Origin: an uncultured Chryseobacterium sp. | GTDB taxonomy: Bacteria > Bacteroidota > Bacteroidia > Flavobacteriales > Weeksellaceae | Length of the DNA: 64,000 bases | Direction: 5' to 3' | Assembly (NCBI GenBank): GCA_913778085.1 | Contig: CAJYXJ010000055.1 | Location: forward strand, 36,193 to 100,192 | Shown here: in pieces, positions 23,882 through 51,076 of the stretch | Position numbering within the stretch: the first letter of the stretch is position 1 | How the letters are laid out: each line of letters begins with the position of its first letter | Position numbers and translations under genes: made by a program | The notes under the pieces: model-generated | Told to the model about the DNA's origin: nothing | The model's input: the letters and a program-made list of their open reading frames with translations, nothing else | Databases searched by the model: none

Positions 23882-24436
23882 TTATTGATAGATTGCTACA
23901 AATTTTTCAAGGCCTTCCCTTTGTCCGGAACCTACAGCTTCAAACTTCCACTCTCCGTTTCTGTTGTAAATCCTTCCGAATTCCACTGCGGTTTCGATGG
24001 AGAAGTCTTCATCCAGTTCGTATTTAAGAATTTCTTCGTTGGTATCGGTATTGAAAATTCTGATGAATGAGTTTCTTACCTGTCCGAAGTTCTGTCTTCT
24101 TGCATCGGCCTCGTGAATCGTTACTACTACGGTAATCTCTTTTACGGCAGGATCAATTTTAGTTAAATCGATTTTAATCTGCTCATCATCCCCGTTTCCA
24201 TCTCCTGTCAGGTTATCCCCAGAGTGGATCACGGCTTTATCCGGAGATTCCAGGTTGTTGTAAAAGATAAAGTGGTTATCGGAAACGAGCTTCTTGTTTT
24301 CGCCCAATAAAAATAAGGAAGCATCAAGATCAAAAGCCGTTCCCGTCGATGTATTATTGGTATCCCATCCTAAACCTACGGTGAATTTCGGTGCATTTAT
24401 ATTTTCTCTCTGTCCTTTCTGTAAGTTAATAGCCAT
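23882..24436 (-). CDS. TerD-family protein
   Basis: A 184-residue TerD protein (MAINLQKGQRENI) with HSGDNLTGDGNGDDEQI for calcium binding and FVAIYQ at the end. Its start overlaps the end of the PRTase gene by 11 bp, and its stop touches telA, indicating one transcript. It is the canonical-length member of the two TerD copies. Confidence 0.93.
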   Translation of the reverse strand: MAINLQKGQRENINAPKFTVGLGWDTNNTSTGTAFDLDASLFLLGENKKLVSDNHFIFYNNLESPDKAVIHSGDNLTGDGNGDDEQIKIDLTKIDPAVKEITVVVTIHEADARRQNFGQVRNSFIRIFNTDTNEEILKYELDEDFSIETAVEFGRIYNRNGEWKFEAVGSGQREGLEKFVAIYQ

Positions 24437-31631: not shown

Positions 31632-32408
31632 AGGTAGCGGTAAGATTTCTTCCGCACAATCTTTTTGAACATTCTGGTATTCCTTCTTTACTTCAGCATC
31701 CGATAAGTTTCAATTTGTGTCTGATCCTTAATTGAATTAACTACGTTTCTGTGAGTTTAAAATAGAAAACGAATTAAAAGCAGGAAAGGATAAAACAGAA
31801 TGCAGAAATTTCTCCTGTCAATATATTCGGTAAAAATATGCCGGTAACGTTTCGGTTTTTTTCTATACCTATTATGGGTGAACGTTCGGTTCAGTCGTCT
31901 ATCTTTCGAGACATGTTAAAAATTTGCTAAATAAACGATACGATACCATAATTTTTTCACTAAATATGGATTATTTAATATCATTTTTAATGTTTTTTCA
32001 AGTTTAGATAAATTTCGGACTTATTTTTTTTGAGAAAGTATATAAATTTTTTCTATATTTGACTTTGTAAAGAAACATAGTGCACGGAAAAATTTTTAGG
32101 AAGCATATATTATTATCCATAACTTTAAAAAAGTTGGAATAGTATGTTTTAGGGCAAATTGATGATGGATGGGAATGAAAACTCGGAATATTGCCGCGAT
32201 ATGAGCAACATGCAAATTTCTTTATGATTTGAAAGACAGATTGTACCCGTCAGCATTTTTTGGTAATCCAAAAATCTGATTTTGTCGTATTTATTACACT
32301 TCATAATTTCCATCAACTTTTTTAATGCCTGCTAAATAGAAATGAAAATAACATAACCTTTTGGTTAGATCGAAAATTGTTTATAACACCTAGATTTATT
32401 AATAAATA
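31632..32408 (+). promoter_or_regulatory. Long non-coding spacer with promoter at 32030-32061
   Basis: No gene is visible in these 777 bp. On the plus strand TTG (32030-32032) and TATATTTG (32054-32061, perfect TAnnTTTG) are 21 bp apart. A transcript from there would have about 340 nt of untranslated leader before the ATG at 32409, including an ATTTTTTGG/CCAAAAAT inverted repeat near 32260. It could be a long 5' leader or a separate small RNA. Confidence 0.5.
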
Positions 32409-32825
32409 ATGTTGTACAAAGAAATACATATCGGAAAGTTTATTAAAGAGAGAGTTAATGAACTGGAAATGAGCTTAGAGAGAGTATGCAGCTTCCTGAA
32501 AAAAGATGAAGAAGCCGTGGAAAAGATGTTTGAAAGCCAATCGATAGAGACAGATCTTCTATTGAGATGCTCGAAATTACTGGAATATGATTTTTTCAGA
32601 ATCTACAGTTCCCACCTGATCCTGTATTCTCCTCCTTCGGCGGTGGATAAGACCAAAAATCCGAAATCCGATAAGATTCCTTATTTCAGGAAAAACATCT
32701 ATACCCAGGAGATTAAAGATTTTATCATCGGGAAAATCCAGTCCGGCGAAATGACGCACAGTGAGATTATCGAGGAGTATTCCATTCCAAAAAGTACGCT
32801 GCACCGTTGGCTTCAAAAAATTTAA
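32409..32825 (+). CDS. Helix-turn-helix protein, possibly regulatory
   Basis: A 138-residue protein in two parts: an XRE-like N-terminal helical region (IKERVNELEMSLERVCSFLKK) and a C-terminal helix-turn-helix of the transposase-orfA or Psq type (GEMTHSEIIEEYSIPKSTLHRWLQK). No catalytic transposase domain, inverted repeats or target duplication are seen. It is followed 12 bp later by another small HTH protein, so the two act together. I cannot say if they regulate the adjacent RNA array. Confidence 0.75.
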   Translation: MLYKEIHIGKFIKERVNELEMSLERVCSFLKKDEEAVEKMFESQSIETDLLLRCSKLLEYDFFRIYSSHLILYSPPSAVDKTKNPKSDKIPYFRKNIYTQEIKDFIIGKIQSGEMTHSEIIEEYSIPKSTLHRWLQKI

Positions 32826-32837
32826 ACCCAGAAAAAA

Positions 32838-33185
32838 ATGAAGCGCCCTAATTATACGAAAATCTATCAAGACATGCTGAAAGAAAGGGATCCGGAAAAG
32901 CTGGAAGATCCTAAAGTGCAGCGTCTTATAAAGAACCTGAAAACAACGGAAGATATCCTGAAGTTTAACGAACTGGTTTTTGAATCATCAAAAGAAAGCC
33001 TGAGGAACAACCAGAAGCTGAAAACGTATGATAAGAAAACCATGCTGAAGCTCCTTCAGTATCAGGAAAAACATGGCCTGTCTACGAATTTTATGTCGAA
33101 GAAGTATAAAATCAGCAGAACGACCATTGCCAAGTGGAAGAAAACCTTCGAAGAAGAGTATCAGAAAATAACTTCAAAAAAATAA
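32838..33185 (+). CDS. Second small helix-turn-helix protein
   Basis: A 115-residue basic protein ending in a helix-turn-helix (LLQYQEKHGLSTNFMSKKYKISRTTIAKWKK) similar in type to the C-terminus of the preceding protein. It is the second gene of a two-gene unit closed by the terminator at 33209-33240, directly beside the tRNA-like array. A regulator or a remnant of a mobile element are both possible. Confidence 0.75.
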   Translation: MKRPNYTKIYQDMLKERDPEKLEDPKVQRLIKNLKTTEDILKFNELVFESSKESLRNNQKLKTYDKKTMLKLLQYQEKHGLSTNFMSKKYKISRTTIAKWKKTFEEEYQKITSKK

Positions 33186-33208
33186 TTCAGGCTTATATCC
33201 TGAAAAAA

Positions 33209-33240
33209 AATCCGGTGAAATTAGTTCACCGGATTTTTTT
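33209..33240 (+). terminator. Strong intrinsic terminator after the HTH pair
   Basis: Perfect 11-bp arms (ATCCGGTGAA / TTCACCGGAT core) around ATTAG and a run of T. It isolates the HTH unit from the array. Confidence 0.92.
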
Positions 33241-33404
33241 GTGTAAAGGGAATTGTGGGAAAAAGAAAAAGCAGGGCACTGTTATGCCGGAGTCGAACCG
33301 GATCGCCTTGCAGGAATAATCTGCTGCGCGATTCCTCCCCTTTCAATGGTAACGAAGGATCTTTTCCCTACGCCACTTTGTGTTAAAAACAACAAGGCAA
33401 TAAC

Positions 33405-33494
33405 CGAAAAGCGCATTTGCGTGCTCTAACCAACTGAGCTACTTTTCCTGTTTGATCTGTGTTTTATGGTGGAAAAGGCGGGAATCGAACCCGC
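33405..33494 (-). ncRNA. Capped tRNA-like unit with 22-nt acceptor loop
   Basis: Minus-strand order: T arm GCGGGTTCGATTCCCGC (33478-33494), acceptor 3' strand CTTTTCC, loop of 22 nt starting ACCA, acceptor 5' strand GGAAAAG (33442-33448), D arm AGCTCAGTTGGTTAGAGC, then a mini-hairpin CGCAAATGCG. The seven acceptor pairs are perfect. The encoded ACCA (discriminator plus CCA) right after the 3' strand is just what a circularly permuted tRNA gene would have. Confidence 0.75.
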
Positions 33495-33714
33495 GACCCC
33501 GTCGTAATGAGCGAAGTAGCACTGTTCTACGGCACTTGTTTTTATTTCATTACAAATAAGGTAAAAAGCGAAAAAAGTATGCTCTTTTCAGAGCGCCGCT
33601 CTTACCCGTTATGGGCAGTGAGCCGGCAATTCTACATCTGCGGGAGACTTGCGCTTTCTTATGAAAACTTTTGCCCGGTTGGTTTTCAACCCAACTTCGC
33701 TGGTTCGGTCGCCC

Positions 33715-33747
33715 GAATGTCGCTACCTTAGGACCGTTATAGTTACG
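33715..33747 (-). rRNA. 33-nt fragment matching 23S rRNA domain IV
   Basis: On the minus strand, 33 nt beginning CGTAACTATAACGG and ending CCTAAGGTAGCGACATTC match, with one mismatch (at 33719), the near-universal 23S segment around E. coli 1924-1956 (helices 69-71) as I remember it, the core of the I-CeuI recognition sequence. Similarity stops at both ends, so it is an isolated fragment inside the array between boxes 2 and 3, not part of an rRNA operon. Next to it are hairpins TTCGG/CCGAA with a GCGA loop (33704-33717) and GTTGG/CCAAC (33678-33695). Confidence 0.85.
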
Positions 33748-33793
33748 AAGGAACTTTTTTCTACGACACTTATCCGTAAATTTTTAATTAAAA

Positions 33794-33860
33794 AGAGGCA
33801 ACAGGCGGAAAAACTCTTATAAACCAGGTGAGGTTTATCATGGAGTCGAACCAACATCAT
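33794..33860 (-). ncRNA. Degenerate capped tRNA-like unit
   Basis: Minus strand: a weak T arm with GGTTCGACTCC (33838-33860), then a 7-bp acceptor ATAAACC/GGTTTAT closed by the 6-nt loop TCACCT (33819-33838), then a loose D-arm-like AGAG/CTCT stem. The T stem has lost most pairs while the capped acceptor is perfect. Confidence 0.6.
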
Positions 33861-33924
33861 AAAGATTAACCGAAGTAAGTTTTCCCTACGGCACTCCTTG
33901 TTTTAAATCAAGGTAATACTACCA

Positions 33925-33998
33925 GAATCTTCCGTTCATCTGCTCTACCTGCTGAGCTACTTCTCCTTTTCGAGGGAAAAGGCAGGAATCGAACCTGC
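33925..33998 (-). ncRNA. Capped tRNA-like unit with 8-nt acceptor loop
   Basis: Minus strand: T arm GCAGGTTCGATTCCTGC (33982-33998), acceptor CTTTTCC/GGAGAAG (7 pairs, one G-U) closed by CTCGAAAA, D arm AGCTCAGCAGGTAGAGC (33942-33958) and an anticodon-arm remnant. It sits between boxes 4 and 5. Confidence 0.72.
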
Positions 33999-34099
33999 GA
34001 CCCAATGGTTAATATCGAAGTATGATTCTGAAACGACACTTGATTTTTGTATTTTTTTAAAATTACAAGGCAAACACTAATAAAAGTTGTCTTAAAAAC

Positions 34100-34145
34100 G
34101 TCTAGCCACTCGACCACACCTTCCGGCGAAAGGATTTGAACCTTT
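34100..34145 (-). ncRNA. Capped tRNA-like unit closed by a GGAA tetraloop
   Basis: Minus strand: T arm AAAGGTTCAAATCCTTT (34129-34145), four acceptor pairs CGCC/GGTG closed by the GNRA tetraloop GGAA, then a D-arm-like GGTCGAGTGGCTAGACG resembling Leu/Ser tRNAs. The acceptor is shortened relative to the other units. Confidence 0.6.
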
Positions 34146-34263
34146 GTAAAAATCGAAGTAACTTTTATTTACGGCACTTGTAAGTAATGGTAAACCGAGC
34201 AAAATTCAGGAAGAGGCTTTTTTCAATTTGGATTCGAAGGAACTCTTTCGTACAGCATCGATT

Positions 34264-34720
34264 GTTTTAAGTTTTTATGGTTATTGTTTTAAAGTTATTG
34301 CTTTAGTGCGCATTTTTTACGCCATTAAATGTATTAAAAAAACCAAGTAACAGGTTATAAAAGTTTTTGAATTCAGTTCAAATTAAAAGTTTGACGATGG
34401 AACTCTTATGATAACGACATTGGTTTATTCAAACCGGGCGATGCAGCGAAAAGATTCTTATTCAAGTCGAAATCGAAGGAATTCTTTTCTTACGGCACCG
34501 GTTATTTTTAAGCAAGGTAAAAAAGCAAACAGAGACTTACTGATGGAGTGATTATTACACTATCCCGGAACTTCCGGGAGCAGGATTCGAACCTGCATTG
34601 CCACCCCCAAAACGAAGAAATTCTATTTTACGACACTTGCTTTTTTAAGTTCTCATGGTTGTTGTTTTTGTTGAAGCAAAGTTATTGCCTAAGTACGCAT
34701 TCTTTTTACGCAGTTAAATT
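34264..34720. repeat. Duplicated 65-75-bp segment inside array 1
   Basis: 34264-34330 and 34643-34720 share, in order, TTTTAAGTT, ATGGTTrTTG, AAAGTTATTGC, TACGCATT-like and TTTTTACGC blocks with few gaps. Each copy directly follows a Ro-binding-like box, so box plus segment was duplicated as a unit. Confidence 0.65.
34547..34596 (-). ncRNA. Capped tRNA-like unit closed by a triloop
   Basis: Minus strand: T arm GCAGGTTCGAATCCTGC (34580-34596), 7-bp acceptor TCCCGGA/TCCGGGA closed by AGT (34563-34579) and a D-arm-like AGTG/CACT hairpin (34547-34561). The acceptor helix is a perfect GC-rich hairpin in AT-rich surroundings. Confidence 0.7.
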
Positions 34721-35248
34721 TTATCTGAAAAATATGGAATCGATAATTTCACCCAGTTTGACAAGTCCTAAAAAAGGCAGTAAAATAATGGCTGCAATAA
34801 GCAGTACAAATCCGGCTTTACTTAAAAAACTATCTTCAGATTCTGTATAATTTCCTTTTTCTCTTCTCTTTCTTTTAAAGTCGGGAATGTGTTTCGTCTT
34901 CTTAAAACTATCAGCTTCAAGTTCTTTAATGATGTTCAAAGCATAAACCGGAAGCTTGTTTTTATCTCCCCGGAAGATTATGTCTTTAAGAATAGCATTC
35001 CCGGAATTGCTTAACGAGCATCTGTAGAGCTCAACGGCTTCTTTCATCTCAAAATTCTGAGGTTCAGATAAAATCCAGAATTTTCCGGCTTCATCCTTAA
35101 ATCCTGCCTCATAATAGATCTGTGCCAGCTTTTCCCTTAACGAGAGATCATCCGGATATTCATTGATAAGGTTCCGCAGCCGGTCGCAGGCTTTTTTCTT
35201 CTTTCCTGTCTTAAGATCCTGTTCGATTTTGTAAAAATGATTTCCCAT
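34721..35248 (-). CDS. DUF6584-like protein with C-terminal membrane anchor
   Basis: A 175-residue protein. The first 60 residues (KACDRLRNLINEYPDDLSLR, then AQIYYEAGFKDEAGKFWIL) look like the TPR-like DUF6584 family; a basic stretch (KHIPDFKRKRREKG) precedes one hydrophobic helix (AGFVLLIAAIILLPFLGLV) near the C-terminus. It lies between the TROVE gene and array 1 on the same strand, so it may anchor an RNA-protein complex to the membrane; that role is a guess. The DUF name is from memory of the sequence pattern. Confidence 0.7.
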   Translation of the reverse strand: MGNHFYKIEQDLKTGKKKKACDRLRNLINEYPDDLSLREKLAQIYYEAGFKDEAGKFWILSEPQNFEMKEAVELYRCSLSNSGNAILKDIIFRGDKNKLPVYALNIIKELEADSFKKTKHIPDFKRKRREKGNYTESEDSFLSKAGFVLLIAAIILLPFLGLVKLGEIIDSIFFR

Positions 35249-35522
35249 GTGTTTATCTGTTTGTGAAAATGACGCAGCAATATTCTGTTCATTTTGCCTT
35301 TAAGAGAAGAATCAAAATTGAAATCTTTACCTGATTTAACCCTTGTTCTCCGTTTCTGCTTTTGGGTCTTTTTTAGCCCCGATTGCAACGACATCCTTTT
35401 TCTGCAAGGCTTAAAAAAAAAGCGTTGGCGAAAAAGATACAGTGGAAAGCGGGATTAAGCTCCTGATCGAATCAATCCTTCAAATTATTTATAACTTATA
35501 ACTCATTTAAAAGCAGTGCCTT

Positions 35523-37064
35523 TTACAGCACTACTTTTTTAATCATTTCCACGGCCGATTTCCGGTCTTCCAGGGCATTCAGCACATCGAAAATCTTATC
35601 GGACCAGCCGGCGATCAGATAGACATCATTTTTTCTGACATCCAGGGGTTGTCTTCTATAACCTGCCAGATCAAAGATATACAGTTTGGCCTTCGGGTTG
35701 AATTTTTTATACCGATTCCATGAATCTTCAAAAGAGTTCCGGGTCCCGTTGCTGTTCCACATCTGCGTATCGGTGAAAAGCATCACTTTGTCCGCTTTTT
35801 CACTTCTGTTCAACAAGTCTTCGATCACCAGGTAACCGTTGGTAGAATACCCTACTTCGCCTTCCCTTTTATAAAAGGCATCAACGTTTCTCAGGATTCC
35901 ACTTTTAGGCATGGCAACCCTCTTCCAGGTATCGCCGAACATTCCCGCGATAACATTGCTGCACTGCGACTGCAGCATCATCGACATCAGCAGTCCGATA
36001 TCGTACAGCAATACTTTGGATTTCGGGGAAACCGGCTGTTGCATCGATCCCGATACATCAGCCGCAATCACTACGGAAGTATTAAAACCAAAGCCTTTGA
36101 TATTCCCCGCACTTATCGCCACCGCATCTTCCAATGCTTCCAGAACAGACGGCAGATAAGGGGAATCAATGGCTTTCAGTTCCCTGTAAGCTGCCAGAAA
36201 CCTGAACGGCAGCTGCTTTGAATTCCTTACGGCTTTTTCATCAGACAGGTACCTGCAAACTCTTTCCATCGCCCGGGAAGAAACATTTGCTTCCAGAATA
36301 TTCCTTAGGTTTCTCAGGGTCGCCATATATCCAAGCTTGTTGCTGAAGATCAGTTCTTCCCATTTGGTCTTGAAAGCGGCCTTTCTTTCGGCATCATCCG
36401 CAAATCGGGTCTGGCCCAGTACGGAAAGTTCCACTTCCCAGGTGTAAGGTGTTTCCAATGAATCATTGACGATTTTGTTGAAAATAGCCTGCTGGTTTTC
36501 ATCTTTTGCCTTCGGGTGAACGAGGAACAGAGCATCTTTCAGGGTAACCTCAGCTTTCCGGTTGTATTTGGCAAACTGGTATTCGTCAAATTTATTAAAG
36601 GATTTTACCAGGCCTTTCTGAATCTGTTTTGAAAGCCTGTTCAGCTTTTTAAGATCCGTTCTCTCGTTGGCCATCTGGTAGTAGGCCAGCAATTCGGTGA
36701 TTTCATCCGCTCTCTGGATGACCCCATCCACTGTTCTGCTTACCAGGTCGGTACCCGAAGCCTGCTTCGCCAACTCGGTCGTCAGTACCAAAGGCACCGA
36801 ACGCAGATACATTTCTTTTCTTGCATAAACAGCCAGCCTGGCTACGAATTCCGGATCGTTTTTCTGAATCAGAGACTGAATTCTCGCCAGTCTTTCATTT
36901 CCTTTTTCATATGTTGTGTTTGATAATCCTGTTGTTACCACAGCACTATATAGTTCTTCGGCAGGAGTCATTGTGTATGCTTTGGCACCTTCGTAATTCA
37001 TCACTGCTTTATTTTCTTTTTTTAAAAAATTAAATTTCATGGTTACTGTTTTATTGTTAAACAT
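35523..37064 (-). CDS. TROVE-domain protein, bacterial Ro60
   Basis: A 505-513-residue Ro60 orthologue; MKFNFLKKENKAVMNYEG (37040) and MFNNKT (37064) are both possible starts. The HEAT-like TROVE ring spans about 15-330 (LYSAVVTTGLSNTTYEK, RLARIQSLIQKNDPEFVARLAVYAR, GYMATLRNLRNIL), followed by a vWA domain with MIDAS DVSGS at about 336-340 and FTDTQMW. Ro60 binds Y RNAs on the outside of the ring and single-stranded 3' ends of misfolded RNA in the hole, and with nucleases takes part in rRNA maturation and stress RNA decay. A Y-like array lies just downstream. Confidence 0.95.
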   Translation of the reverse strand: MFNNKTVTMKFNFLKKENKAVMNYEGAKAYTMTPAEELYSAVVTTGLSNTTYEKGNERLARIQSLIQKNDPEFVARLAVYARKEMYLRSVPLVLTTELAKQASGTDLVSRTVDGVIQRADEITELLAYYQMANERTDLKKLNRLSKQIQKGLVKSFNKFDEYQFAKYNRKAEVTLKDALFLVHPKAKDENQQAIFNKIVNDSLETPYTWEVELSVLGQTRFADDAERKAAFKTKWEELIFSNKLGYMATLRNLRNILEANVSSRAMERVCRYLSDEKAVRNSKQLPFRFLAAYRELKAIDSPYLPSVLEALEDAVAISAGNIKGFGFNTSVVIAADVSGSMQQPVSPKSKVLLYDIGLLMSMMLQSQCSNVIAGMFGDTWKRVAMPKSGILRNVDAFYKREGEVGYSTNGYLVIEDLLNRSEKADKVMLFTDTQMWNSNGTRNSFEDSWNRYKKFNPKAKLYIFDLAGYRRQPLDVRKNDVYLIAGWSDKIFDVLNALEDRKSAVEMIKKVVL

Positions 37065-37095
37065 TCAGAGGATTATCATTTCCTCCCTGATTTCT

Positions 37096-37137
37096 GATGC
37101 AAAGTAACCACATCATTACGCAATGTTTCTGCGTAGT
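37096..37137 (-). promoter_or_regulatory. Promoter-operator block of the TROVE gene
   Basis: On the minus strand a palindrome ACGCAGAAACATTGCGT lies upstream of a -7-like TTACTTTG followed by CATC. The same 42-bp arrangement occurs before the Cys-rich gene at 40574-40615 with 34 of 42 positions identical and no gaps. The palindrome sits where an activator would bind (roughly -30 to -50), and no -33 TTTG at proper spacing is seen. Confidence 0.75.
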
Positions 37138-37308
37138 TTATTTTTTATGCGAAAAAGTTTATTTTTTTTGTTTAAAAACGAATGACTGTAATTTTTTCAC
37201 GAATAACACAATGATTGGAAACAACCGTGCAAACAAAGAATATAATTTGTCTATCATTCATTTTATGTAAAGGAATTGAGGATTTAAAATTTTTAAAAAT
37301 GCATTTTA

Positions 37309-37316
37309 TAGCTTTG
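37309..37316 (+). promoter_or_regulatory. -7 box for the VOC gene
   Basis: TAGCTTTG, a perfect TAnnTTTG, 17-20 bp before the VOC start codon. Confidence 0.5.
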
Positions 37317-37332
37317 TTTTATTCAAATTAAA

Positions 37333-37800
37333 GTGATGATTAAAGGATTGTATGAAACCCACATTCAGTTAAGCGACCTGGAAAAAGCAGTTGCCTTTTA
37401 TATAGAAATTTTAGGATTGGAACTGGCGCACCGGGATGAAACCCGTCCGATCGTTTTTTTATGGATCGGCAATAACAAAACATCGATGCTGGGTTTATGG
37501 GAACAGAAAGAAAACCTGCAGACGCGGCATTTTGCCTTTACCGCAGAAAAGGACGATATTTTGAATTTCTCCTCTGAATTCCTGAAAAGTAAAAACCTGA
37601 AACCCTACAATTTCCTGAAAGACGGGAGCGAAAAACCGATGGTTTTTGCCTGGATGCCGGCTGTGGCGATTTATTTCAACGATCCGGACGGCAACCAGCT
37701 GGAATTTATTTCTGTTCTGCAAGGCGAAGGCCGGCCTGAGCTGGGGGTGGTTTCGTATGAAGAGTGGCAGGAAAAAAATCAAAACAGATTTAAAGTTTAA
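37333..37800 (+). CDS. VOC-family protein (glyoxalase/bleomycin-resistance fold)
   Basis: A 155-residue single VOC domain: IKGLYETHIQLSDLEKAVAF at the start, a second half with PAVAIYFNDPDGNQLEFISVL that supplies the usual metal-ligand glutamate region. The start may be ATG 37333 or 37336. Members include dioxygenases, glyoxalases and binding proteins, and the substrate is not predictable. It is the only plus-strand gene inside the RNA island and is probably unrelated to it. Confidence 0.85.
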   Translation: MMIKGLYETHIQLSDLEKAVAFYIEILGLELAHRDETRPIVFLWIGNNKTSMLGLWEQKENLQTRHFAFTAEKDDILNFSSEFLKSKNLKPYNFLKDGSEKPMVFAWMPAVAIYFNDPDGNQLEFISVLQGEGRPELGVVSYEEWQEKNQNRFKV

Positions 37801-37947
37801 ATTTGTTTTGATTGCTTATTATTGAATTTATTAATCGGATTAGCATCCGATTTCGGTGTAAATCGTCCCTTCGGAACTTTTTTGATTTTAAAACAAGACA
37901 GGTTTTGCTTTTGCAAAACCCGTCTCTATAATAACAGTTATCAGTTT

Positions 37948-39459
37948 TTATTTTGTGAAGATTTCTTTCAACTGAGAAACAATGCTGCTGTTTCCGGAAA
38001 CGGTAATATCTCCAATTTTGTCGGCGATTTTTTCCATATATTCCATTTCTTTCAGCTTCCAAAGCACTTCGTTTTCTTCCATTAGTTTCGCTGTATTCAG
38101 CAAACTTCTCGTGGAAGCGGTTTCTTCACGTCTCATAATGCTGTTGGCCTGGGCTTTTTTTTCGGCAATCAAAACCTGATTCATGATTTCCTTCATTTCA
38201 CCTGTCAAAATCACGTCCCTGATTCCCGCGTCGGAAGTTTTCAAGCCCAGTTCCTGGGCCTTGTTTCCCAGATTTTCGAGGATTTCTTTTCCTACGGAAT
38301 CTTTTTTCAACAGCAATTCATCCAGCGTCAAAGCTCCGACGAATTCACGCAAAGCCAGCTGCATCAGAATATACAATTGCTTATCGTATTCTTTATTTTC
38401 CATCAGCGCTTTCCCGATGTTTTCCACCTGAAAACGAACATAGAAATTAATACGAAGCATCGCTTTATCTTTTGTTAATAATTCCTGTCCTGCAATTTCC
38501 ATCTGCTGCATTCTCATATCTGCCGATTTTACTTCAATTGAAGTTTCGTTGTTCCAGAAGTAGTATGTTCCGGCTTCAAGAATTTTGGTTAGCTTTCCGT
38601 CAATTAACAGTAATCCTTCATGTTGATTGGAGACAATAAATTTTCTTACATAATTTCTCAATTTTACATTTTCCAGGATCGTATTCGAAATGGCTTCTGT
38701 AATTTCAACTTTCATCAAATTCACCTTTTGAAATTCTCTATCTACAAGATCTACCCAAAATGCATGCTGACCCACGTTCAATACATCCTTCAAACTTCCG
38801 TTTTCATATAGCAAAATAATTTCTCCGTCTTTTACCTCTATAATTTTCAAAAAATCTTTAAGCGGCTCGGATTTTATCAAAACAGTTCCGTTTTCATGGG
38901 ATCCGAACTGTGATTTTATTTCGTAGTTTGGATCTATGGTTTTAATTTCAATAGAAGATTCATTATTCCAGAAAGAGTAAATACCACCTTCCAAAACTTG
39001 ACTTACTTTTCCGTCAATTAACAGCAAGCCTCTATATTGAAATGGCACGACAAACTTTCTTATCAAGCTTTTTAATTTCATATTTTCCAAAACTGTCTTT
39101 GAAATTCCTTGCGGAATCTCAACTTTTGTCAGGTCGATTTTTTGAAACTCTCTGTTAGAAATTCCTTTCCAAAAAGCATATTGACCGACATTCAGAACTT
39201 CTTTAAAAATTTCGTTTTCGTACATCAGAACGATTTCACCGTCTTTTACCTCAACGACTTCCAATAGAGATTTCAGGCTTTCATCTTTCAACAAAATATT
39301 AAGATCCGTATTAGATTTAAATAGAGATTTCATATCATAAATTTCCACAGACTTATTTCCAAAAATCCAGAAATTGCCTTCTTTCAAAATATCAATCAGT
39401 TTTCCGTTTTTGAAAACCAAACCCGTTTCATAAGCCTTAATCCGTACATTTTTTATCAT
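37948..39459 (-). CDS. Slipin/Band-7 (SPFH) protein with duplicated N-terminal module
   Basis: I start at 39459 (MIKNVRIKAYETGLVFKNGK); the open frame goes back to 39549 but those 30 residues look like spacer. The 503-residue protein lacks the N-terminal membrane hairpin of typical slipins. Instead a module of about 140 residues occurs twice (VEVKDGEIVLMYENE...GQYAFW...LLIDGKVSQVLEGGIYSFW, then VKDGEIILLYENG...GQHAFW...LLIDGKLTKILEAGTYYFW), followed by the SPFH core (LRINFYVRFQV) and a long C-terminal helix. Band-7 proteins with tRNA-like RNAs are proposed scaffolds in bacterial RNA repair; a tRNA-like array lies directly upstream here. Confidence 0.88.
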   Translation of the reverse strand: MIKNVRIKAYETGLVFKNGKLIDILKEGNFWIFGNKSVEIYDMKSLFKSNTDLNILLKDESLKSLLEVVEVKDGEIVLMYENEIFKEVLNVGQYAFWKGISNREFQKIDLTKVEIPQGISKTVLENMKLKSLIRKFVVPFQYRGLLLIDGKVSQVLEGGIYSFWNNESSIEIKTIDPNYEIKSQFGSHENGTVLIKSEPLKDFLKIIEVKDGEIILLYENGSLKDVLNVGQHAFWVDLVDREFQKVNLMKVEITEAISNTILENVKLRNYVRKFIVSNQHEGLLLIDGKLTKILEAGTYYFWNNETSIEVKSADMRMQQMEIAGQELLTKDKAMLRINFYVRFQVENIGKALMENKEYDKQLYILMQLALREFVGALTLDELLLKKDSVGKEILENLGNKAQELGLKTSDAGIRDVILTGEMKEIMNQVLIAEKKAQANSIMRREETASTRSLLNTAKLMEENEVLWKLKEMEYMEKIADKIGDITVSGNSSIVSQLKEIFTK

Positions 39460-39885
39460 CGTTTTATATTTTAAATAGTTATTAATTTCAATTAAAAAAG
39501 AAAATCCGGAATCTTTTCTTCCAAAAAATGCGGAAGGAAAGCAATTCATAAAAATTCATTGAGCTTAGAATCTTATTTTCAAATTCAGTTTCCAATTATT
39601 CAGATTTTGGGCGTGTCCCTCGCTTCGGCTTTACCAGCAGCTCGGGCCGCTATGTTCACTTCTATCTTTTTGCAAGCGAAAAAGGATATCCGTTACCATC
39701 GCTCACGCAGACGATCGTCCTTTTTTAAAAAAATTCATCCAAAGAATTATTGATTCTTAGTCTCCATTTCATTTTCAGAAAACATCTTTTCTTACAGGCT
39801 TTTTCAAAATGTTGATTCAACAACTGAAAAAATCCCGGATTTTTCCATAAATATTTTTTAATGAGAATATTCAAAACTCTAATAA
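39460..39885. other. Spacer with a dispersed repeat
   Basis: No gene is supported. At about 39607-39712 lies a block with GGGCGTGTCCCTCGCTTCGG and AAAAAGGATATCCGTTACC, a type of GC-rich repeat often seen between flavobacterial genes. The slipin promoter should also be here. Confidence 0.55.
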
Positions 39886-39908
39886 AAAATAGATTTTGAG
39901 TCTATTTT
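39886..39908. terminator. Hairpin ending array 2
   Basis: AAAATAGA and TCTATTTT pair perfectly around a 7-nt loop, with A/T runs on both sides. It follows the last tRNA-like unit on the minus strand. Confidence 0.7.
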
Positions 39909-39910
39909 CA

Positions 39911-40066
39911 ACCTACATTAAAAGTGTAGTGCTCTAACCGGACTGAGCTACCTCATTTGAAGTGAGGGTGGGAGTCGAACCCACGCATAAATCTATTGTT
40001 CTACCATTTGAACTATATCCTTTTTCAGAGACAGAAGGACTCGAACCTTCAACCTATAGAATCGTA
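39911..40066 (-). ncRNA. Two tandem capped tRNA-like units upstream of the slipin gene (array 2)
   Basis: Minus-strand order. Unit 1: T arm GAAGGTTCGAGTCCTTC, acceptor CTGTCTC/GATATAG (one mismatch) closed by a loop rich in A, D arm GTTCAAATGGTAGAAC. Unit 2: T arm GTGGGTTCGACTCCCAC, acceptor CCTCA/TGAGG closed by CTTCAAA, D arm GCTCAGTCCGGTTAGAGC, then an intact anticodon arm CTACACTTTTAATGTAG with anticodon TTT (Lys). The order T arm, capped acceptor, D arm is the same as in array 1, without Ro boxes. This fits the tRNA-like RNA reported beside Band-7 genes. Confidence 0.75.
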
Positions 40067-40204
40067 CGAGATTTTTTGGAAAACCTCAAACCTTTAAGCG
40101 AAGTTGAACAGAACAAAATCATGTTTCTCAACAAATTCTTCTGCAATAGTGTTATACAGAAACACCGAACAAGACCCGCCTGATATTTTTACAGAAATAT
40201 CTTT

Positions 40205-40558
40205 TTAAAGTATTTCTTTCATTATTATATGATCCAGACTAAAATGTAAATAGTTAGAAGTGCAGCAATCTGAACTTTCAGTTGCTACTTCATGTCCGTT
40301 TTTACACAACTTATTTACGCCATTTGATCCTGAACTTCCGCAACAACCTGAAAATCTCCCAGAATCACGATGGTCAATTAATTTTTCATCATCAAGATTT
40401 GTTAAAACGGAATTTTTATAATCCAAATGGACAACAGCTTCTTTGTTTTCCAGAATGTCATATCCGGGCTTCCATTTCAATCGGGATTCGGGAACAACAG
40501 TTAAAATGCCGGTTAATCCTACCTTACAAGATTTACATAAAAGCTGAATATTTTTCAT
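40205..40558 (-). CDS. Small Cys-rich protein, probable zinc binding
   Basis: Start at 40558 (MKNIQLLCKSCKVGLTG); ATG 40567 is an alternative, and the longer open frame to 40660 covers the promoter. About 117 residues with CKSC near the start, then FSGCCGSSGSNGVNKLCKNGHEVATESSDCC, which looks like a zinc-ribbon pair. No family recognised. It shares a 42-bp promoter-operator block with the TROVE gene and so probably belongs to the same response. Confidence 0.7.
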   Translation of the reverse strand: MKNIQLLCKSCKVGLTGILTVVPESRLKWKPGYDILENKEAVVHLDYKNSVLTNLDDEKLIDHRDSGRFSGCCGSSGSNGVNKLCKNGHEVATESSDCCTSNYLHFSLDHIIMKEIL

Positions 40559-40573
40559 ATGTTTCATTTTGAT

Positions 40574-40615
40574 GATGCAAAGTAAACAGGGAATTGCGCA
40601 ATGTTTTTGCGTTGT
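40574..40615 (-). promoter_or_regulatory. Promoter-operator block of the Cys-rich gene
   Basis: Minus-strand ACGCAAAAACATTGCG palindrome upstream of TTACTTTG and CATC, matching the TROVE block at 37096-37137 over 42 ungapped positions (34 identical). Changes concentrate in the spacer between palindrome and -7 box. Confidence 0.75.
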
Positions 40616-40801
40616 AAAAAAATTGTGATCTTTTGTCTTTGCAAACTGAAAGCGAAACAATCTGTTCTTTAATTAAGATTACTTCGTCGTTTTGCCTTTC
40701 GCAATGACATGGTCGGAAATAAAAAACTCCCTTAAAAAAGAGAGTTCCGTTGTTCTGTTTACAATATTTTTACATTGTCACATTGTTACATTGTTACCTC
40801 A

Positions 40802-41353
40802 TTAATATTGTTTGAGGCACCAGTGCAGAATTTTCGCAATGTTTTTCGCATCATCTACGCCCCGATGATGAGTTCCATCAAGCGTGAGGTTCAGTTCGCC
40901 CAGGGCGCGGGCCATGCCTACACTTTTACGGATGGTAGGATGCAGTTCTCCGAATAAGGTTTTCACATTGATGTGGTCATCACTCAGCGGATAATCCACG
41001 TTGAAACGGCGTGCCTGGTTCTGAAGCATGTTCAGGTCGTAGTTTCCGTAACTGGCCCAGGTAAGGTTCTCGGAATCGTATTCCGCTCTCAGGATGTCGA
41101 GAGCATCTTCCAGCAGAATGCCTTCATCATCGAGCATCTGTTGGGTAATGGAAGTGAGTTCCGTACAGAACGGGCTTACTTTGGAGTATTGAGGTTTTAC
41201 TAAAATGCCCTCACTTTTAGAAGTCTTACCGGTTCCGGCATCCATAAGGCACACCCCGATTTCAATAATTTCACTTTCCTGACCCCTTGGCTGCCGGTCG
41301 TTCCAGCACGTCGCTTCAAGGTCTATAATTAATATGTTGTCTGTTGTTTTCAT
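40802..41353 (-). CDS. DEDDh 3'-5' exonuclease, ERI-1-like (copy A)
   Basis: A 183-residue RNase T/DnaQ-fold enzyme: Exo I IIDLEATCW (D, E), Exo II NLTWASYGNYD, and Exo III HHRGVDDAKNIAKIL (H and D). The motif CWNDRQPRGQESEIIEIG is typical of the ERI-1/KapD group, which trims 3' ends of RNA such as rRNA and small RNAs. A paralogue lies 260 bp upstream (41616-42161). In this island a role in 3'-end trimming of damaged RNA is plausible. Confidence 0.88.
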   Translation of the reverse strand: MKTTDNILIIDLEATCWNDRQPRGQESEIIEIGVCLMDAGTGKTSKSEGILVKPQYSKVSPFCTELTSITQQMLDDEGILLEDALDILRAEYDSENLTWASYGNYDLNMLQNQARRFNVDYPLSDDHINVKTLFGELHPTIRKSVGMARALGELNLTLDGTHHRGVDDAKNIAKILHWCLKQY

Positions 41354-41615
41354 TTGTTTAAAATTTAATTTGTTAATGGCTTGAAGATGGATGATGGAAG
41401 CTGGAAGTCAGGAGTTGTTATCAACTTCCGGATTCCTATATCCACTTCTTACCAGATTGATTGTAAATGTGAAAGCTGATGTTAAGACAGAATGCATTTT
41501 AACACCGTAAAAACTTCCAGCATCCGGCATCCCGCTTCTCTACTCTACTGCTGAAGACTGGACTTCATTCCACACTACCATAACTTCCAGCTTCCAGCAC
41601 CCATTTTCCTACCTT

Positions 41616-42161
41616 TTATCTCAGCATTTCCCGTAAAATCCGGGCGGCATTATAGGCATCATCGGCTCCGCTGTGGTGGCTGCCTTCAAATTCCATATTC
41701 AGGGCTTTCAGGGCTCTTTTCAGACCCATCATTTTGTACAGGCCGTTGTAGGCTTTGAAGCGGTGCATGATGTTGATGTAATTTTCAGAAAATGGGTTTT
41801 CGATGCCGAGATAATCGCACTGTTCAACGATCTGCTCCTTGTCAAAGGCTCCGAATCCCGCCCATGCGAGTGACTCAGAATGGTATTCATCCCGGATTTT
41901 CTCGCAGGCTTCTTCAAAATAAATTCCTTTTTCTTCAATCAGTTTTGGCGTAATTCCGGTAAGTTGCGTACAAAATTTGTTGATTTTGGAACGTTCGGGA
42001 ATGACATAAATGCTCTGCTTGTTGGAAATTATTCTTGTATCCGTATCTAATGTGCAGATTCCTATTTCTATGATATCGGTTTTCTGGCCAGGAGGGATTT
42101 TATCGTATTCCCAGCACGTGGCTTCTAAATCGATAACGATTATTTTGCTGTTTGTTTTCAT
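41616..42161 (-). CDS. DEDDh 3'-5' exonuclease, ERI-1-like (copy B)
   Basis: A 181-residue paralogue of the preceding enzyme with VIDLEATCW, SLAWAGFGAFD and HHSGADDAYNAARIL; all four acidic residues and the histidine are kept. The central CTQLTGITPKLIEEKGI block aligns with CTELTSITQQMLDDEGI of copy A. Spacer repeats (GGAAGATGGATG family) flank both copies, so they arose by an old duplication. Likely RNA substrate. Confidence 0.88.
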   Translation of the reverse strand: MKTNSKIIVIDLEATCWEYDKIPPGQKTDIIEIGICTLDTDTRIISNKQSIYVIPERSKINKFCTQLTGITPKLIEEKGIYFEEACEKIRDEYHSESLAWAGFGAFDKEQIVEQCDYLGIENPFSENYINIMHRFKAYNGLYKMMGLKRALKALNMEFEGSHHSGADDAYNAARILREMLR

Positions 42162-42312
42162 TTTGTTGGGTTGGCTGGAAGATGGATGCGGGATGATGGA
42201 AGTTTATTGATTGCATCAACTCCGGTTTCCATTTTATAGCCCCTGTCTTGATTTTTAATGTAATGGCACTAAATGATGGAGACATCCGCCTCCATCACCA
42301 GCATCCGATTTT

Positions 42313-42876
42313 TTAATTTCTCGGGGCAAACGGCGGAGTCCATTTTTTCTTTTTCATCATTTCTTTTACTTCTTCATAGGAAACGGGATAGAAATTATGG
42401 CAATCTACACCTACATCAAAGCTCAATGCCGCTTCATCATCCGGCAAGGTTCCGTGCGAATGCCCGTAAAGCTGCCAGACGCCGCGGTGGGAGCCGTTCC
42501 AGGTCCGCATGGCATAATGGAAAAGAATGATTTTCTGTTTGCCGTTGCTGTTTTCCGGTTCGTCGATTCTTAGTTCATGGTAATCCCGTATCGAAGCAAA
42601 ACGCTTAGGATATGTGAGTGCCGCCCCTTCGTGATTGCCTTTGATGAGATGGATGTGACCGTTCAGCCGGTCCAGAATTTCTCTTGTGAAATCCGGTTTG
42701 CCCAGACTAATGTCTCCTAAGTGGTAAACGGTATCTCCTGGACCGATTTTCTCATTCCATCTTTTAATAAGCTCTTCATTCATCTGCTCCAGAGACTCAA
42801 AAGGCCTATCGGAGAATTTGATGATATTTTCGTGACCGAAATGGTGGTCTGCCGTAAAAAATATATTAGGTTTCAT
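42313..42876 (-). CDS. Calcineurin-like metallophosphoesterase
   Basis: A compact 187-residue phosphoesterase: FFTADHHFGHENII (DxH), YHLGDISLG (GD), LIKGNHE (GNHE), LFHYAM and LYGHSHG (GHxH). All metal ligands are present. Enzymes of this size include phage-type and RNA-repair-associated phosphatases that remove 2' or 3' phosphates before ligation. Substrate is inferred only from the neighbouring RNA ligases. Confidence 0.87.
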   Translation of the reverse strand: MKPNIFFTADHHFGHENIIKFSDRPFESLEQMNEELIKRWNEKIGPGDTVYHLGDISLGKPDFTREILDRLNGHIHLIKGNHEGAALTYPKRFASIRDYHELRIDEPENSNGKQKIILFHYAMRTWNGSHRGVWQLYGHSHGTLPDDEAALSFDVGVDCHNFYPVSYEEVKEMMKKKKWTPPFAPRN

Positions 42877-43002
42877 TTTTTCAATTTTTTTATTTACCAG
42901 TTGAATGCTGTTATTCGTCTCAATTTTCAGATTGATAACAACAATACTTAACCAGCTGATTTAATATGTTGCTTGTCTTTAAAACTTTTTACTCTGAAAG
43001 TT

Positions 43003-43872
43003 TTAAGGTTTGATTAACATCCAAAGATCTTTCAGATCAGGAATGAATGTGGTAATCAATGAAGGACTTTTTCCGGGATTTTCCTGCGCTTTCCACAAGC
43101 CCCATTCGCCACGGGTCCGGTAAGGAATGACCTCTGCCCAAAGCGCTTTTGAAGGATCGATGGCCAGTAAAGCCGCTACCGTATCATGCAGTGCTTTCTC
43201 TTTCAGCTCTACTGCTTTCAAAAAGAGGTTCAGCCCTTTATTATGGTTTCTAAACGGGATCAGCATTTCCGCGTCAGCTTTGGTGAAGACCGCTGCATGG
43301 CAGACATTTTTACTGATCAGGCGCCTTTCGGTCATCGGGATCGAAAAAAGCTTTTCAGCAGCCAGCGGATTTCCGTTCAGATTAAAGGTTGCACAGGTTG
43401 TTTTCCCATTAAATTTTTCTATTCGGTGCTCTTTTGGAACGATATTGTCCCCGGCAAAACCTCCCTGGCAGAACCAGCGGTCGAAAAAGACACCGGTTTC
43501 GTATAAGGTATACGGATTTGTTAGGGCCGCTCCTGTCAACAGCGTGCTATCCGGAAACTGATGTAGGGTCTCCGCCATAATTTCTACGGCAGAACCGTCT
43601 GCTTCCGAATCTTTAAAACCTCCGACCCAATCCCGGTGAAATACTGATACACGCGGGGCATCAGATTTGGGAGTGCCGGCTCCGATACGGATATCTTCGC
43701 GGTCCAGCATATTGAGGATCTTTCTCACAAAACCGATCTGATCCTTTCCTCCCGGATGTACGGAAACGCTTACAAGATGAACCCTGGGATGTGTTGCCAG
43801 AATAGCCAACGTCATCGCATCATCAGGATCAGCCGTTTCCATATCAAAATGAAAAGGTATTTTATATTGCAT
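43003..43872 (-). CDS. Nucleoside hydrolase-like protein
   Basis: A 289-residue protein of the inosine/uridine nucleoside N-ribohydrolase fold. The N-terminal calcium site reads FHFDMETADPDDAMTLAIL in place of the standard DTDxGxDD, keeping Asp10, Asp15 and Asp17-18; LTGAALTNP stands for the GPLTN region. Such enzymes cleave ribose from bases or related compounds. Its position between phosphoesterase and RNase Z-like genes suggests turnover of nucleosides from RNA breakdown, or a modified role. Confidence 0.8.
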   Translation of the reverse strand: MQYKIPFHFDMETADPDDAMTLAILATHPRVHLVSVSVHPGGKDQIGFVRKILNMLDREDIRIGAGTPKSDAPRVSVFHRDWVGGFKDSEADGSAVEIMAETLHQFPDSTLLTGAALTNPYTLYETGVFFDRWFCQGGFAGDNIVPKEHRIEKFNGKTTCATFNLNGNPLAAEKLFSIPMTERRLISKNVCHAAVFTKADAEMLIPFRNHNKGLNLFLKAVELKEKALHDTVAALLAIDPSKALWAEVIPYRTRGEWGLWKAQENPGKSPSLITTFIPDLKDLWMLIKP

Positions 43873-43916
43873 AGTTTATTTTTTAGTTATTAGTTTCAGC
43901 TTTAAAATAATCCGGA

Positions 43917-44861
43917 CTAATCTACTCCGAATGCTTTATAAAAAGCCGACTCAATCTCCAGCCTGTCGATTTCCATGTACCTTCTTGAAAAATGCACCGG
44001 TACGGCTTTCTTTACTCCGCAATCCTTCATGATTTTTCCGGATGCCGAAGCGTAGCTGTGGTAATTCAATTTTGCGAATTCTTGGTCTTCATCTTTGTAG
44101 AAGGTTTCGATGTACACCAGATCCGCATTCCCGAAAACAGTTTTTATCTTTTCATAATTGCCTTTCTCTGCTGCATGATCCATGATAATACCGAGTTTAT
44201 AGCCTTCATTTCTGGTAAGCAGATGGAATAAATCCGAAGCTTTGTAAACCGTTCCTTCGATTTCAATCTCCTTATCGTTTTCACTTCTTTCAAAAGCGGC
44301 CTTCAGTTCGCTGATCCATTTTCCTTTTTTAAATTCGGAGCCGTTTTCATTAAAACTCACTGAATCTTTCTCTTTGAAAAGATAAGCGATGGAATCGGTC
44401 TTGTGGTCCAGAATCGCGAAATCCACCTTTACATATTCATCTTCAAAGAGGAAATCCTGGCTTTTTACAAATTCAACATTCCACTTGGGCGGACGGATTT
44501 TATAAACATTAATTTCTTTTTCGGAAACAATTTCACGGATTTCATATTCAATAGCGTTTTCATCAATCAGGTTCCAGGTGTAGGATTTCAATCGTGCTTC
44601 AATCTGCTGCTGGATATTCTCCGGCCCGCAGATCACCACTTTTTCACCGCTTCCGATCTGATGCCTGAAAATGCCGTCAAAATTGGAAAAATGATCGATA
44701 TGGGTATGGCTGATGAATACTGCCGATACCGATTGCACTTCTTTTACCGTCAGCAAGCTTGCTTCACCGCAATCACACAGGTAATGCTTCGCTGAATTCG
44801 GGACTTTTATCAATATACTGATGTCTTCTTTAAAAAGACTTTTTATCTCTGCCTGTAACAT
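43917..44861 (-). CDS. RNase Z-like metallo-beta-lactamase-fold hydrolase
   Basis: A 314-residue MBL protein with HTHIDHFSNFDG (HxHxDH) and, near the C-terminus, VPVHFSRRYMEID, matching the HFSxRY motif that marks RNase Z/ElaC-type enzymes. IIMDHAAEKG and NYHSYASASG supply further ligands. RNase Z cleaves the 3' trailer of tRNA precursors. Many tRNAs in this window lack an encoded CCA, the normal RNase Z substrate class. An insertion of about 70 residues in the middle differs from canonical ElaC, so the target may be special. Confidence 0.78.
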   Translation of the reverse strand: MLQAEIKSLFKEDISILIKVPNSAKHYLCDCGEASLLTVKEVQSVSAVFISHTHIDHFSNFDGIFRHQIGSGEKVVICGPENIQQQIEARLKSYTWNLIDENAIEYEIREIVSEKEINVYKIRPPKWNVEFVKSQDFLFEDEYVKVDFAILDHKTDSIAYLFKEKDSVSFNENGSEFKKGKWISELKAAFERSENDKEIEIEGTVYKASDLFHLLTRNEGYKLGIIMDHAAEKGNYEKIKTVFGNADLVYIETFYKDEDQEFAKLNYHSYASASGKIMKDCGVKKAVPVHFSRRYMEIDRLEIESAFYKAFGVD

Positions 44862-45149
44862 TTTTTTAAGTTTCTATTTTGATGATCTGTTATTAATCCT
44901 TATTGGTCATTTAACACAAAGTTTACGAAGATTTTCTTATTACTAACTGTTTTTAAGTTCACAAAGCTACTTCGACAGGCTCAGCATAAACTTTTCCACT
45001 TAGCAAAGCACTATTTTTTCAGTAAAATTTATCCCATCAATCATATTTCAATAACCGTTTTCTTCGTTAGCGTACCAATATCAGAAGAAAATCTAAGGAT
45101 GATTAAACACATAAAAAGTCCCGGTAAAGGTATTACCGAAACTTAATTC

Positions 45150-45749: not shown

Positions 45750-45763
45750 TCGTCTTTTAATGA

Positions 45764-46777: not shown

Positions 46778-46892
46778 TTTTTTTAGTTTTTATTTAGCCA
46801 TAAACTTTAACTTTCTGGAATGAAAAACCCAAGATCTCCAGATTATCCTGTCTTCTCTATTCCGTTTAACATCAAATCATGGATGGTATATT

Positions 46893-47827: not shown

Positions 47828-47840
47828 TGCTTTATTATTT

Positions 47841-50522: not shown

Positions 50523-50607
50523 TGGTGGAAGCAGCAGGATTTGAACCTGCTCAGCAAAAGCAACGGTGTTACAGACCGCCCCGACTCTCCAGCTTCGGCG
50601 TGCTTCC
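50523..50607 (-). tRNA. tRNA-Tyr-like (GTA), class II, encoded CCA
   Basis: Acceptor GGAAGCA/TGCTTCC is perfect, discriminator A, CCA encoded (plus TGG at 50523-50525). D arm GCCGAAGCTGGAGAGTCGGGGC, anticodon loop CTGTAAC (GTA) on a GCGGT/ACCGT stem, a long variable region as in bacterial tRNA-Tyr, and T arm GCAGGTTCAAATCCTGC. Position 38 is C rather than the usual A. It is the only gene of this array with an encoded CCA. Confidence 0.78.
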
Positions 50608-50686
50608 TTTTTTATGAGTAATAAGTAATTGGCAATATTTTATACTAAATTTCCTATTCTAATTTTAATTTCTTGTGAAGAAAAAT

Positions 50687-50740: not shown

Positions 50741-50778
50741 TTCTTTTTCTCCGGAACTATCTCATTTTAGTTACTTGA

Positions 50779-51016: not shown

Positions 51017-51076
51017 ATTTCACTAAAAATTATATTATGTCACTGTATTCCTCTTTTTTTGTTTCCGAGTTTAGAA

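What the first reader, a model, noticed from the sequence alone, without database searches (positions are those of the whole stretch)
33287..34720. Large Y-RNA-like / tRNA-like array next to a Ro60 gene
Ten near-constant 27-bp boxes on the plus strand match the Ro-binding core of animal Y RNAs (CGAAG plus TACnGCACTTG), alternating with tRNA-like units, directly downstream of TROVE. Known bacteria usually encode one to a few Y RNAs. An array of about ten modules suggests a multi-site RNA scaffold or a set of diversified Ro60 gates. Seen: the boxes and arms. Established: TROVE proteins bind Y RNAs, and YrlA RNAs carry tRNA-like parts. Inferred: function as a Ro60-binding array.
Basis: partly seen in the sequence, partly recalled or inferred. 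Interest (0 to 1): 0.95.

Follow-up and report, generated by a model that had tools for sequence, protein, structure and literature searches.

The report
Tandem array of diversified Y RNAs
Next to a bacterial Ro60-like gene lies a row of about ten small structured RNAs that share one predicted protein-binding stem but carry different heads imitating pieces of transfer RNA and, in one case, ribosomal RNA; they may let one ring protein work with many RNA partners.

Summary
The array is real but runs on the opposite strand from the one named. On the minus strand, the strand of the Ro60-like TROVE gene, 33245-34639 holds ten tandem Y-RNA-like units. Each "box" is the reverse complement of one unit's 5' arm. 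A unit has an end stem with a constant U and core (NNRR-U-GY-CGUA ... UU-RC-YYNN), a second stem, then a variable head. Heads include circularly permuted tRNA-like domains (T arm, acceptor, D arm), short hairpins, and one 216-nt head with a near-exact copy of 23S rRNA H69/H70.

Such units lie downstream of TROVE in all 37 close-type TROVE genomes among 197 sampled from the family, and in 15 of 17 more distant Bacteroidia TROVE loci; one family genome has two units without TROVE. A promoter motif precedes TROVE (36 of 41 loci) and units (30 of 37), only on this strand. The protein model matches Ro60/Rsr folds.

Most likely this is a Bacteroidota branch of the Ro60/Y RNA system with an expanded, diversified Y RNA set (new variant of a known kind). 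Ro60 binding and adaptor function are inferred, not shown. Rfam's YrlA model matches two stretches of the array, both below its cut-off.

The parts
34513..34639 (-). Unit 1 (class 4): T arm, closed acceptor-like stem, D-arm-like part (the last by eye)
34434..34501 (-). Unit 2 (class 0): short unit, no tRNA-like motif
   Evidence: R1 E 4e-19; the model was built with this unit
34343..34423 (-). Unit 3 (class 2): short unit, no tRNA-like motif
34195..34261 (-). Unit 4: short class-0-like unit, missed by the stricter detector
   Evidence: R1 E 3e-14; this unit was not in the model
34066..34180 (-). Unit 5 (class 9): T-arm-bearing unit, permuted by eye
33909..34042 (-). Unit 6 (class 1): permuted tRNA-like head (T arm, acceptor, D arm)
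   Evidence: (YrlA 38.6 bits)
33794..33897 (-). Unit 7 (class 3): T-arm-bearing unit
33557..33772 (-). Unit 8 (class 7): 216-nt unit whose head starts with a copy of 23S rRNA H69/H70 (32 of 33 bases)
33393..33538 (-). Unit 9 (class 6): permuted tRNA-like head with CCA-like linker
   Evidence: (YrlA 37.8 bits over part of it)
33245..33379 (-). Unit 10 (class 5): last unit; T-arm-like hairpin and two further hairpins, not permuted
34677..34711 (-). Promoter motif upstream of the array (inverted-repeat-like block, then TAACTTTG)
   Evidence: (1 mismatch; 0 in 100 shuffles)
34307..34322 (-). Second, weaker copy of the motif block ahead of unit 4 (followed by TAACTTTA)
   Evidence: relaxed pattern only
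37100..37134 (-). Same promoter motif upstream of TROVE
35523..37064 (-). TROVE/Ro60-like ring protein gene
34721..35248 (-). DUF6584 gene between TROVE and the array; found in part of the relatives only
33204..33240 (.). Perfect 16-bp inverted repeat with T runs after the last unit; terminator-like

Best explanation
The locus encodes a tandem array of about ten Y RNAs for the neighbouring Ro60-like ring protein, read from the minus strand. Shown here by computation: the shared end stem with a constant U and core, a second stem, nearly constant 5'-arm length, covariation, diversified heads, a largely kept order, a shared promoter motif and linkage to close-type TROVE. Inferred: the constant end stem docks each RNA on the Ro60 ring, and the head then sticks out and recruits an RNA enzyme (as PNPase is tethered in D. 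radiodurans) or gates the ring. Because heads copy different RNAs (several tRNA-like types, 23S H69/H70), one Ro60 could be paired with several RNA-processing, modifying or repair enzymes under RNA stress. Whether the transcript is cut into single Y RNAs is unknown.
For: Shared core and covariation; permuted T-before-D order in 58 of 58 units with both motifs; sub-threshold YrlA matches on this strand; minus-strand evidence; units in 37 of 37 close-type TROVE genomes; units downstream of TROVE in 15 of 17 distant loci with 0 antisense and 0 upstream detections; promoter motif shared with TROVE; Ro60-like fold. Passages read: Rsr tethered by Y RNA to PNPase (PMC7790460); YrlA head modified by DusA and TruB and binding PNPase (PMC8394870).
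Against: No expression or binding data. Rfam YrlA stays below its cut-off (38.6 against 69 bits). Classes 0, 2 and 8 matched no tRNA-like motif. One genome (G111) has two units and no TROVE match. L158 (cut by the contig end) and L160 showed no unit. The NCBIfam Rsr cut-off is far from met. The count of further pair types did not exceed shuffles in classes 1 and 6 (177 and 444 of 500 reach it). The end stem was used to find the units, so its pairing is partly by construction.
Confidence: 0.65

Rival explanations
1. Decoy set: the units imitate targets of tRNA- and rRNA-cleaving enzymes and soak these up or sense them, with Ro60 holding the decoys.
For: Neighbourhood of RNA ligases, exonucleases and a cREC domain. 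PMC7790460 (passage) proposes that the YrlA tRNA-like domain might competitively inhibit an anticodon nuclease. Heads copy tRNA-like and 23S pieces.
Against: The permuted heads of classes 1 and 6 keep T and D arms, with no ordinary anticodon loop seen by eye; short classes 0 and 2 imitate nothing that I could identify.
Confidence: 0.2
2. The array acts as one long scaffold RNA that lines up many Ro60 rings rather than a set of separate Y RNAs.
For: In the window neighbouring units are 10-23 nt apart, except one gap of 81 nt, in one direction behind one strong and one weaker promoter motif.
Against: Each unit is closed by its own end stem; many loci have wide gaps or extra promoter motifs between units.
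Confidence: 0.1
3. Plus-strand array of animal-like Ro-binding hairpins.
For: On plus, the boxes read CGAAG...TACGRCACTTG, close to the animal Y RNA motif (recalled), and some can form short hairpins.
Against: T and D loops, YrlA matches, all window matches of R1 and R2, and the promoter motif are on minus; G-U outnumber A-C changes 106 to 47.
Confidence: 0.03
4. Decaying tRNA gene copies with no function of their own.
For: Several units resemble tRNA halves; distant arrays lie among true tRNA genes.
Against: Compensatory changes, a kept core across the class, kept order and a conserved promoter motif.
Confidence: 0.02

Closest known systems
YrlA / bacterial Y RNA (Rfam RF02553)
   Same: Linked to a Ro60/Rsr gene; end stem around a head; in classes 1 and 6 a permuted tRNA-like head (T arm, closed acceptor, D arm).
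Ro60-Y RNA-PNPase complex (RYPER) of Deinococcus radiodurans
   Same: A Ro60-fold protein that could carry head-bearing Y RNAs as adaptors.
   Different: Many heads, so possibly many partners; no partner known here.
Salmonella rsr-yrlBA-rtcBA RNA repair operon
   Same: Ro60 gene followed by Y RNA genes in an RNA-repair setting.
   Different: Neighbours identified here are Rnl2- and RLIG1-type ligases, exonucleases and a cREC domain; rtcA, rtcB and rtcR were not searched for by themselves; far more Y RNA units; another promoter motif.
RNA-repair systems with TROVE and SPFH/Band-7 modules and cognate noncoding RNAs (Burroughs and Aravind 2016; recalled, not held in the library)
   Same: TROVE, Band-7 (slipin), ligases and tRNA-like RNAs in one neighbourhood.
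   Different: I could not check whether that paper describes multi-unit arrays or rRNA-like heads.

Membership tests
YrlA (RF02553) | Rfam gathering score (69 bits) | tested here: not met
   Best 38.6 bits in the array; no YrlA at gathering score in 17 of the 18 further loci L148 and L152-L167 (L168 not scanned)
YrlA (RF02553) | Gene next to a Ro60/Rsr gene | tested here: met
   exception G111
YrlA (RF02553) | Permuted tRNA-like head | tested here: inconclusive
   Met in 58 of the 60 units of classes 1 and 6; the other classes lack the D-arm motif or both motifs
Y RNA in general | Bound by Ro60 through the end stem | not testable with these tools
   Needs a binding experiment
Animal Y RNA | Match to the animal Y RNA family of Rfam | tested here: not met
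   No such match listed up to E 5 for 32300-42300
Ro60/Rsr protein | Ro60 fold (ring plus vWA domain) | tested here: met
   All 13 structural matches with E up to 0.001 are Ro60/TROVE entries, TMq 0.52-0.68; Pfam TROVE 106.5 bits; vWA_Ro60 22.9 bits is under its 27.7 cut-off
Ro60/Rsr protein | NCBIfam Rsr equivalog cut-off (900 bits) | tested here: not met
   32.9 bits: a divergent branch

The most novel reading that the evidence does not exclude
Bacteroidota Ro60 works with a swappable rack of substrate mimics. Each Y RNA head is a molecular copy of one enzyme's target (tRNA T and D arms, acceptor, 23S rRNA sites), so the ring can be handed to a set of RNA-modifying, decay and repair enzymes. 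Unit 8 would combine both 23S sites of one m5U methyltransferase, H70 (U1939) and the H35 loop (U747), the two targets of a dual RlmCD-type enzyme (site numbers and enzyme recalled).
Probability: 0.2. Interest if true: 0.9.

Novelty: new variant of a known kind. Interest (0 to 1): 0.74.

Why it matters
What bacterial Y RNAs do beyond tethering PNPase is largely open. A conserved array in which one end stem is paired with many different heads, across dozens of genomes, makes the adaptor hypothesis directly testable: pull down each head and identify its enzyme. It also gives covariance models and a core motif for Y-like RNAs in Bacteroidota that Rfam's YrlA model does not reach at its cut-off, and a candidate promoter motif for the regulon.

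Tried and rejected
Plus-strand reading: rejected. RNAalifold on A1 (class 0) gave no pairs; I then supplied the two stems by hand, so rests on a structure I chose.

H35 mimicry in unit 8: gapped local alignment of the rest of the head with the rRNA operon was not significant (97, 44, 15, 83, 5 and 87 of 100 shuffles at least as good for the six sequences). Two exact words (GACCGAACC, in one sequence longer, and GTTGAAAA) in the right order pass my test in 2 of 6 sequences, against 20 and 16 of 1000 shuffles; 4 of 6 do not pass. Suggestive only. The home genome has one rumA-type gene over the cut-off and two weak matches under it.

rRNA likeness of the other classes: none at E up to 1 for classes 0, 2, 3 and 9; only E above 0.1 for 4, 5 and 8; the better matches of classes 1 and 6 fall on the two tRNA genes between the rRNA genes (places). 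tRNA identity of the heads: best matches spread over several isoacceptors, so none is assigned. A first version ran copies of tRNAs together; its tRNA tables are withdrawn and replaced (its promoter counts stand). PADLOC: one weak CARF3 match to the HTH protein at 32409-32825, otherwise nothing for the 9 proteins given. 23S was not found in the home assembly, so a relative's operon was used.

The loose box pattern (up to 4 substitutions) also gives scattered hits away from the arrays and on the antisense strand, some with 2-3 substitutions (L073 for one); R1 found nothing in L070-L073. Of 237 detections, seven singletons (classes 10-16) are left out of the 230; by eye at least five are spurious. 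L067 holds only singletons, one of them confirmed by R1. One over-long class 6 unit (L059) was left out of A4 (19 of 20 used). For the protein alignment 21 of 25 computed frames were used: two came out empty (L067, L155) and two distant-type proteins were left out. The scans of genome contigs and viral contigs were not used.

Full report
What was claimed and what is there. The finding described ten plus-strand boxes like the Ro-binding core of animal Y RNAs, alternating with tRNA-like units beside TROVE. The boxes exist: at up to one mismatch a consensus finds 8 in the window, all inside the array and all on the minus strand, and two more are longer by one and two bases. The TROVE gene (35523-37064) is on the minus strand, so the array is downstream of it, past a DUF6584 gene. 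T loops, D loops and two sub-threshold Rfam YrlA matches (33920-34030 and 33420-33501, E about 1e-5) are on minus.

Anatomy. Read on minus, each box is the 5' arm of a unit: NNRR, a constant U, GY, CGUA, a strand of the second stem, then UNCWUCG. Then come a head, the partner strand of the second stem, and a 3' arm UU-RC-YYNN. In 237 detected units position 3 with -3 is AU 177 and GC 52; 4 with -4 is GC 179 and AU 55; 7 with -6 is CG 118 and UA 102. The detector asked for 3 of 4 end pairs, so the first two counts are partly by construction; pairing of 7 with -6 was not asked for, though its pattern favoured Y and R there. In the window there are ten units from 34639 down to 33245, 10-23 nt apart except one gap of 81 nt, followed by a terminator-like inverted repeat at 33204-33240.

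Classes. 230 units from 36 of the 37 sources (window and L034-L069; L067 has only singletons) fall into ten classes in a largely kept order, often 0-2-(4)-1-3-(7)-6-5. Classes 1 and 6 have T arm, closed acceptor and D arm in permuted order, in 58 of the 58 units that hold both motifs, of 60. Classes 3, 4, 7 and 9, and 23 of 25 units of class 5, match the T-arm motif without the D-arm motif; classes 0, 2 and 8 match neither. Class 7 (six loci, mean column identity 90%) begins its head with 23S rRNA H69/H70: 32 of 33 bases in the window (E 4e-12), shorter or less exact in the other five, profile E 3.4e-7. A second 23S piece, the H35 loop, is suggested but not established.

Structure test. The covariation score, percentage paired and cells changed on both sides exceed all 500 shuffles in classes 0, 1, 5 and 6, and slid controls are far lower. 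The count of further pair types does not: 4, 177, 2 and 444 of 500 shuffles reach it. Class 0 used a structure given by hand, the others RNAalifold's. In stacked column pairs chosen on Watson-Crick content in classes 1, 5 and 6, which include some pairs outside the structure, G-U cells outnumber A-C 106 to 47, as expected for RNA of this strand.

Who has it. In 197 genomes of the family, 43 have TROVE. I of them close-type (best E 1.4e-14 or better) and 6 distant-type only (E 9.6e-9 or weaker); the four distant-type copies fetched are about 28-30% identical to the window protein. R1 (class 0, E up to 1e-3) hits 36 genomes and R2 (class 1, E up to 1e-10) 37. Together they cover 37 of 37 close-type genomes, 0 of the 6 distant-type-only ones, and one further genome, G111, which has two units and no TROVE match. 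By their places, the hits in TROVE genomes lie on the TROVE contig within about 5 kb. The models were built from units of these same loci, so the informative parts are the absence elsewhere and the distant hits. R2 also gives weaker matches (E 1e-10 to 1e-4) in 20 more genomes; many cover only the tRNA-like middle, and in the three I fetched (L149-L151) the match lies upstream of a slipin gene.

Beyond the family. Of 395 genomes sampled from the class, 18 have TROVE, one being the home genome. In the 17 other loci R2 finds full-length units at E below 1e-8 in 14, and a generic detector finds 41 units in 14, with 0 in the antisense and 0 in the upstream control; 15 of 17 by either. That detector fixed UG-N-CGU, four end pairs, U-8 and C-5; purines at 3-4, Y at position 7 (41 of 41), its pairing with -6 (37 Watson-Crick, 3 G-U) and the TNCWTCG offset (38 of 41 at one place) were not asked for. 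Of the two misses, L158 ends at its contig end just past TROVE. Several distant arrays are mixed with true tRNA genes, 28 in L166.

Promoter. The motif (RCGYAAAAA, NN, WTGCGYA, a spacer and TWANTTTG, up to 2 substitutions) ends within 200 nt upstream of TROVE in 36 of 41 loci and within 120 nt upstream of a detected unit in 30 of 37. In the 41 loci there are no antisense hits, and none in one shuffle of each; a few sense hits lie elsewhere. TAnnTTTG is the Bacteroidetes -7 element (recalled). In the window the block is at 40612, 37134, 34711 and 34322 going down, the last by the relaxed pattern only.

Protein. The 513-aa product has Pfam TROVE (106.5 bits) and a model (mean pLDDT 80.9, pTM 0.71) whose 13 structural matches at E up to 0.001 are all Ro60/TROVE entries, among them 1yvp (Ro with RNAs) and 2nvo (D. 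radiodurans Rsr); superposition is moderate (rmsd 6-10). It is far from the NCBIfam Rsr cut-off.

Mechanism. From passages read: Rsr is tethered by Y RNA to PNPase in D. radiodurans, and the YrlA tRNA-like domain might inhibit an anticodon nuclease (PMC7790460); the YrlA head is modified by DusA and TruB and binds PNPase (PMC8394870). The simplest extension is that the constant stem docks on the ring and each head recruits or mimics a different partner. Docking and recruitment are inferred. A decoy role is the main rival and fits the neighbourhood of ligases, exonucleases and a cREC domain.

Literature. Searches (listings and starts of abstracts; passages of four papers) showed me no description of such arrays in the held open-access library. 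Chen 2014, Burroughs and Aravind 2016, and the Sim reviews of 2018 and 2020 were not read (two look-ups found nothing held), so an earlier mention is possible.

Verdict. A conserved, diversified Y-RNA-like array: a new variant of the Ro60/Y RNA system.

Noticed in passing
window 39880-40128 (-), upstream of the slipin gene 37948-39549 (-): Permuted tRNA-like RNA without the UGYCGUA core (R2 39966-40092, E 2e-7; YrlA 37.9 bits at 39902-40014). The same kind of match lies upstream of slipin in L149, L150 and L151, genomes without a TROVE match; a copy of the promoter motif lies at 40612.
   Followed up: partly
L166 (9742-15975 +), also L154, L165, L167: Distant TROVE loci have runs of true tRNA genes beside or among the Y-like units (28 in L166).
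   Followed up: no
window 50523-52121 (-): Eight further tRNA genes in the same direction as TROVE, with repeated spacer sequences between them.
   Followed up: no
window 35371-35460 (+) and 39641-39717 (-): Flavo-1 RNA over its Rfam cut-off (63.7 bits) on the strand opposite to TROVE and the array, just downstream of TROVE; a weaker one (29.5 bits) near slipin.
   Followed up: no
window 40802-48617 and 54591-60511 (-): RNA-repair-like neighbourhood: two RNase_T exonucleases, Rnl2 and RLIG1-type ligases, cREC receiver domain, R2K ATP-grasp, and a MoxR-vWA-beta-propeller ternary system; TelA and TerD-like genes at 22703-24436.
   Followed up: partly
L070, L071, L072, L073: A distant TROVE type (about 28-30% identical to the window protein) without detectable array units (R1, E up to 0.1).
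   Followed up: partly
L148 10279-10503 (+), genome G111: Two units (class 0 and class 1 like) with no TROVE match in the genome or within the 18 kb fetched: an orphan or remnant array.
   Followed up: partly
window 32409-33185 (+): Two small HTH genes convergent with the array, kept at this place in many relatives; candidates for a regulator, untested.
   Followed up: no
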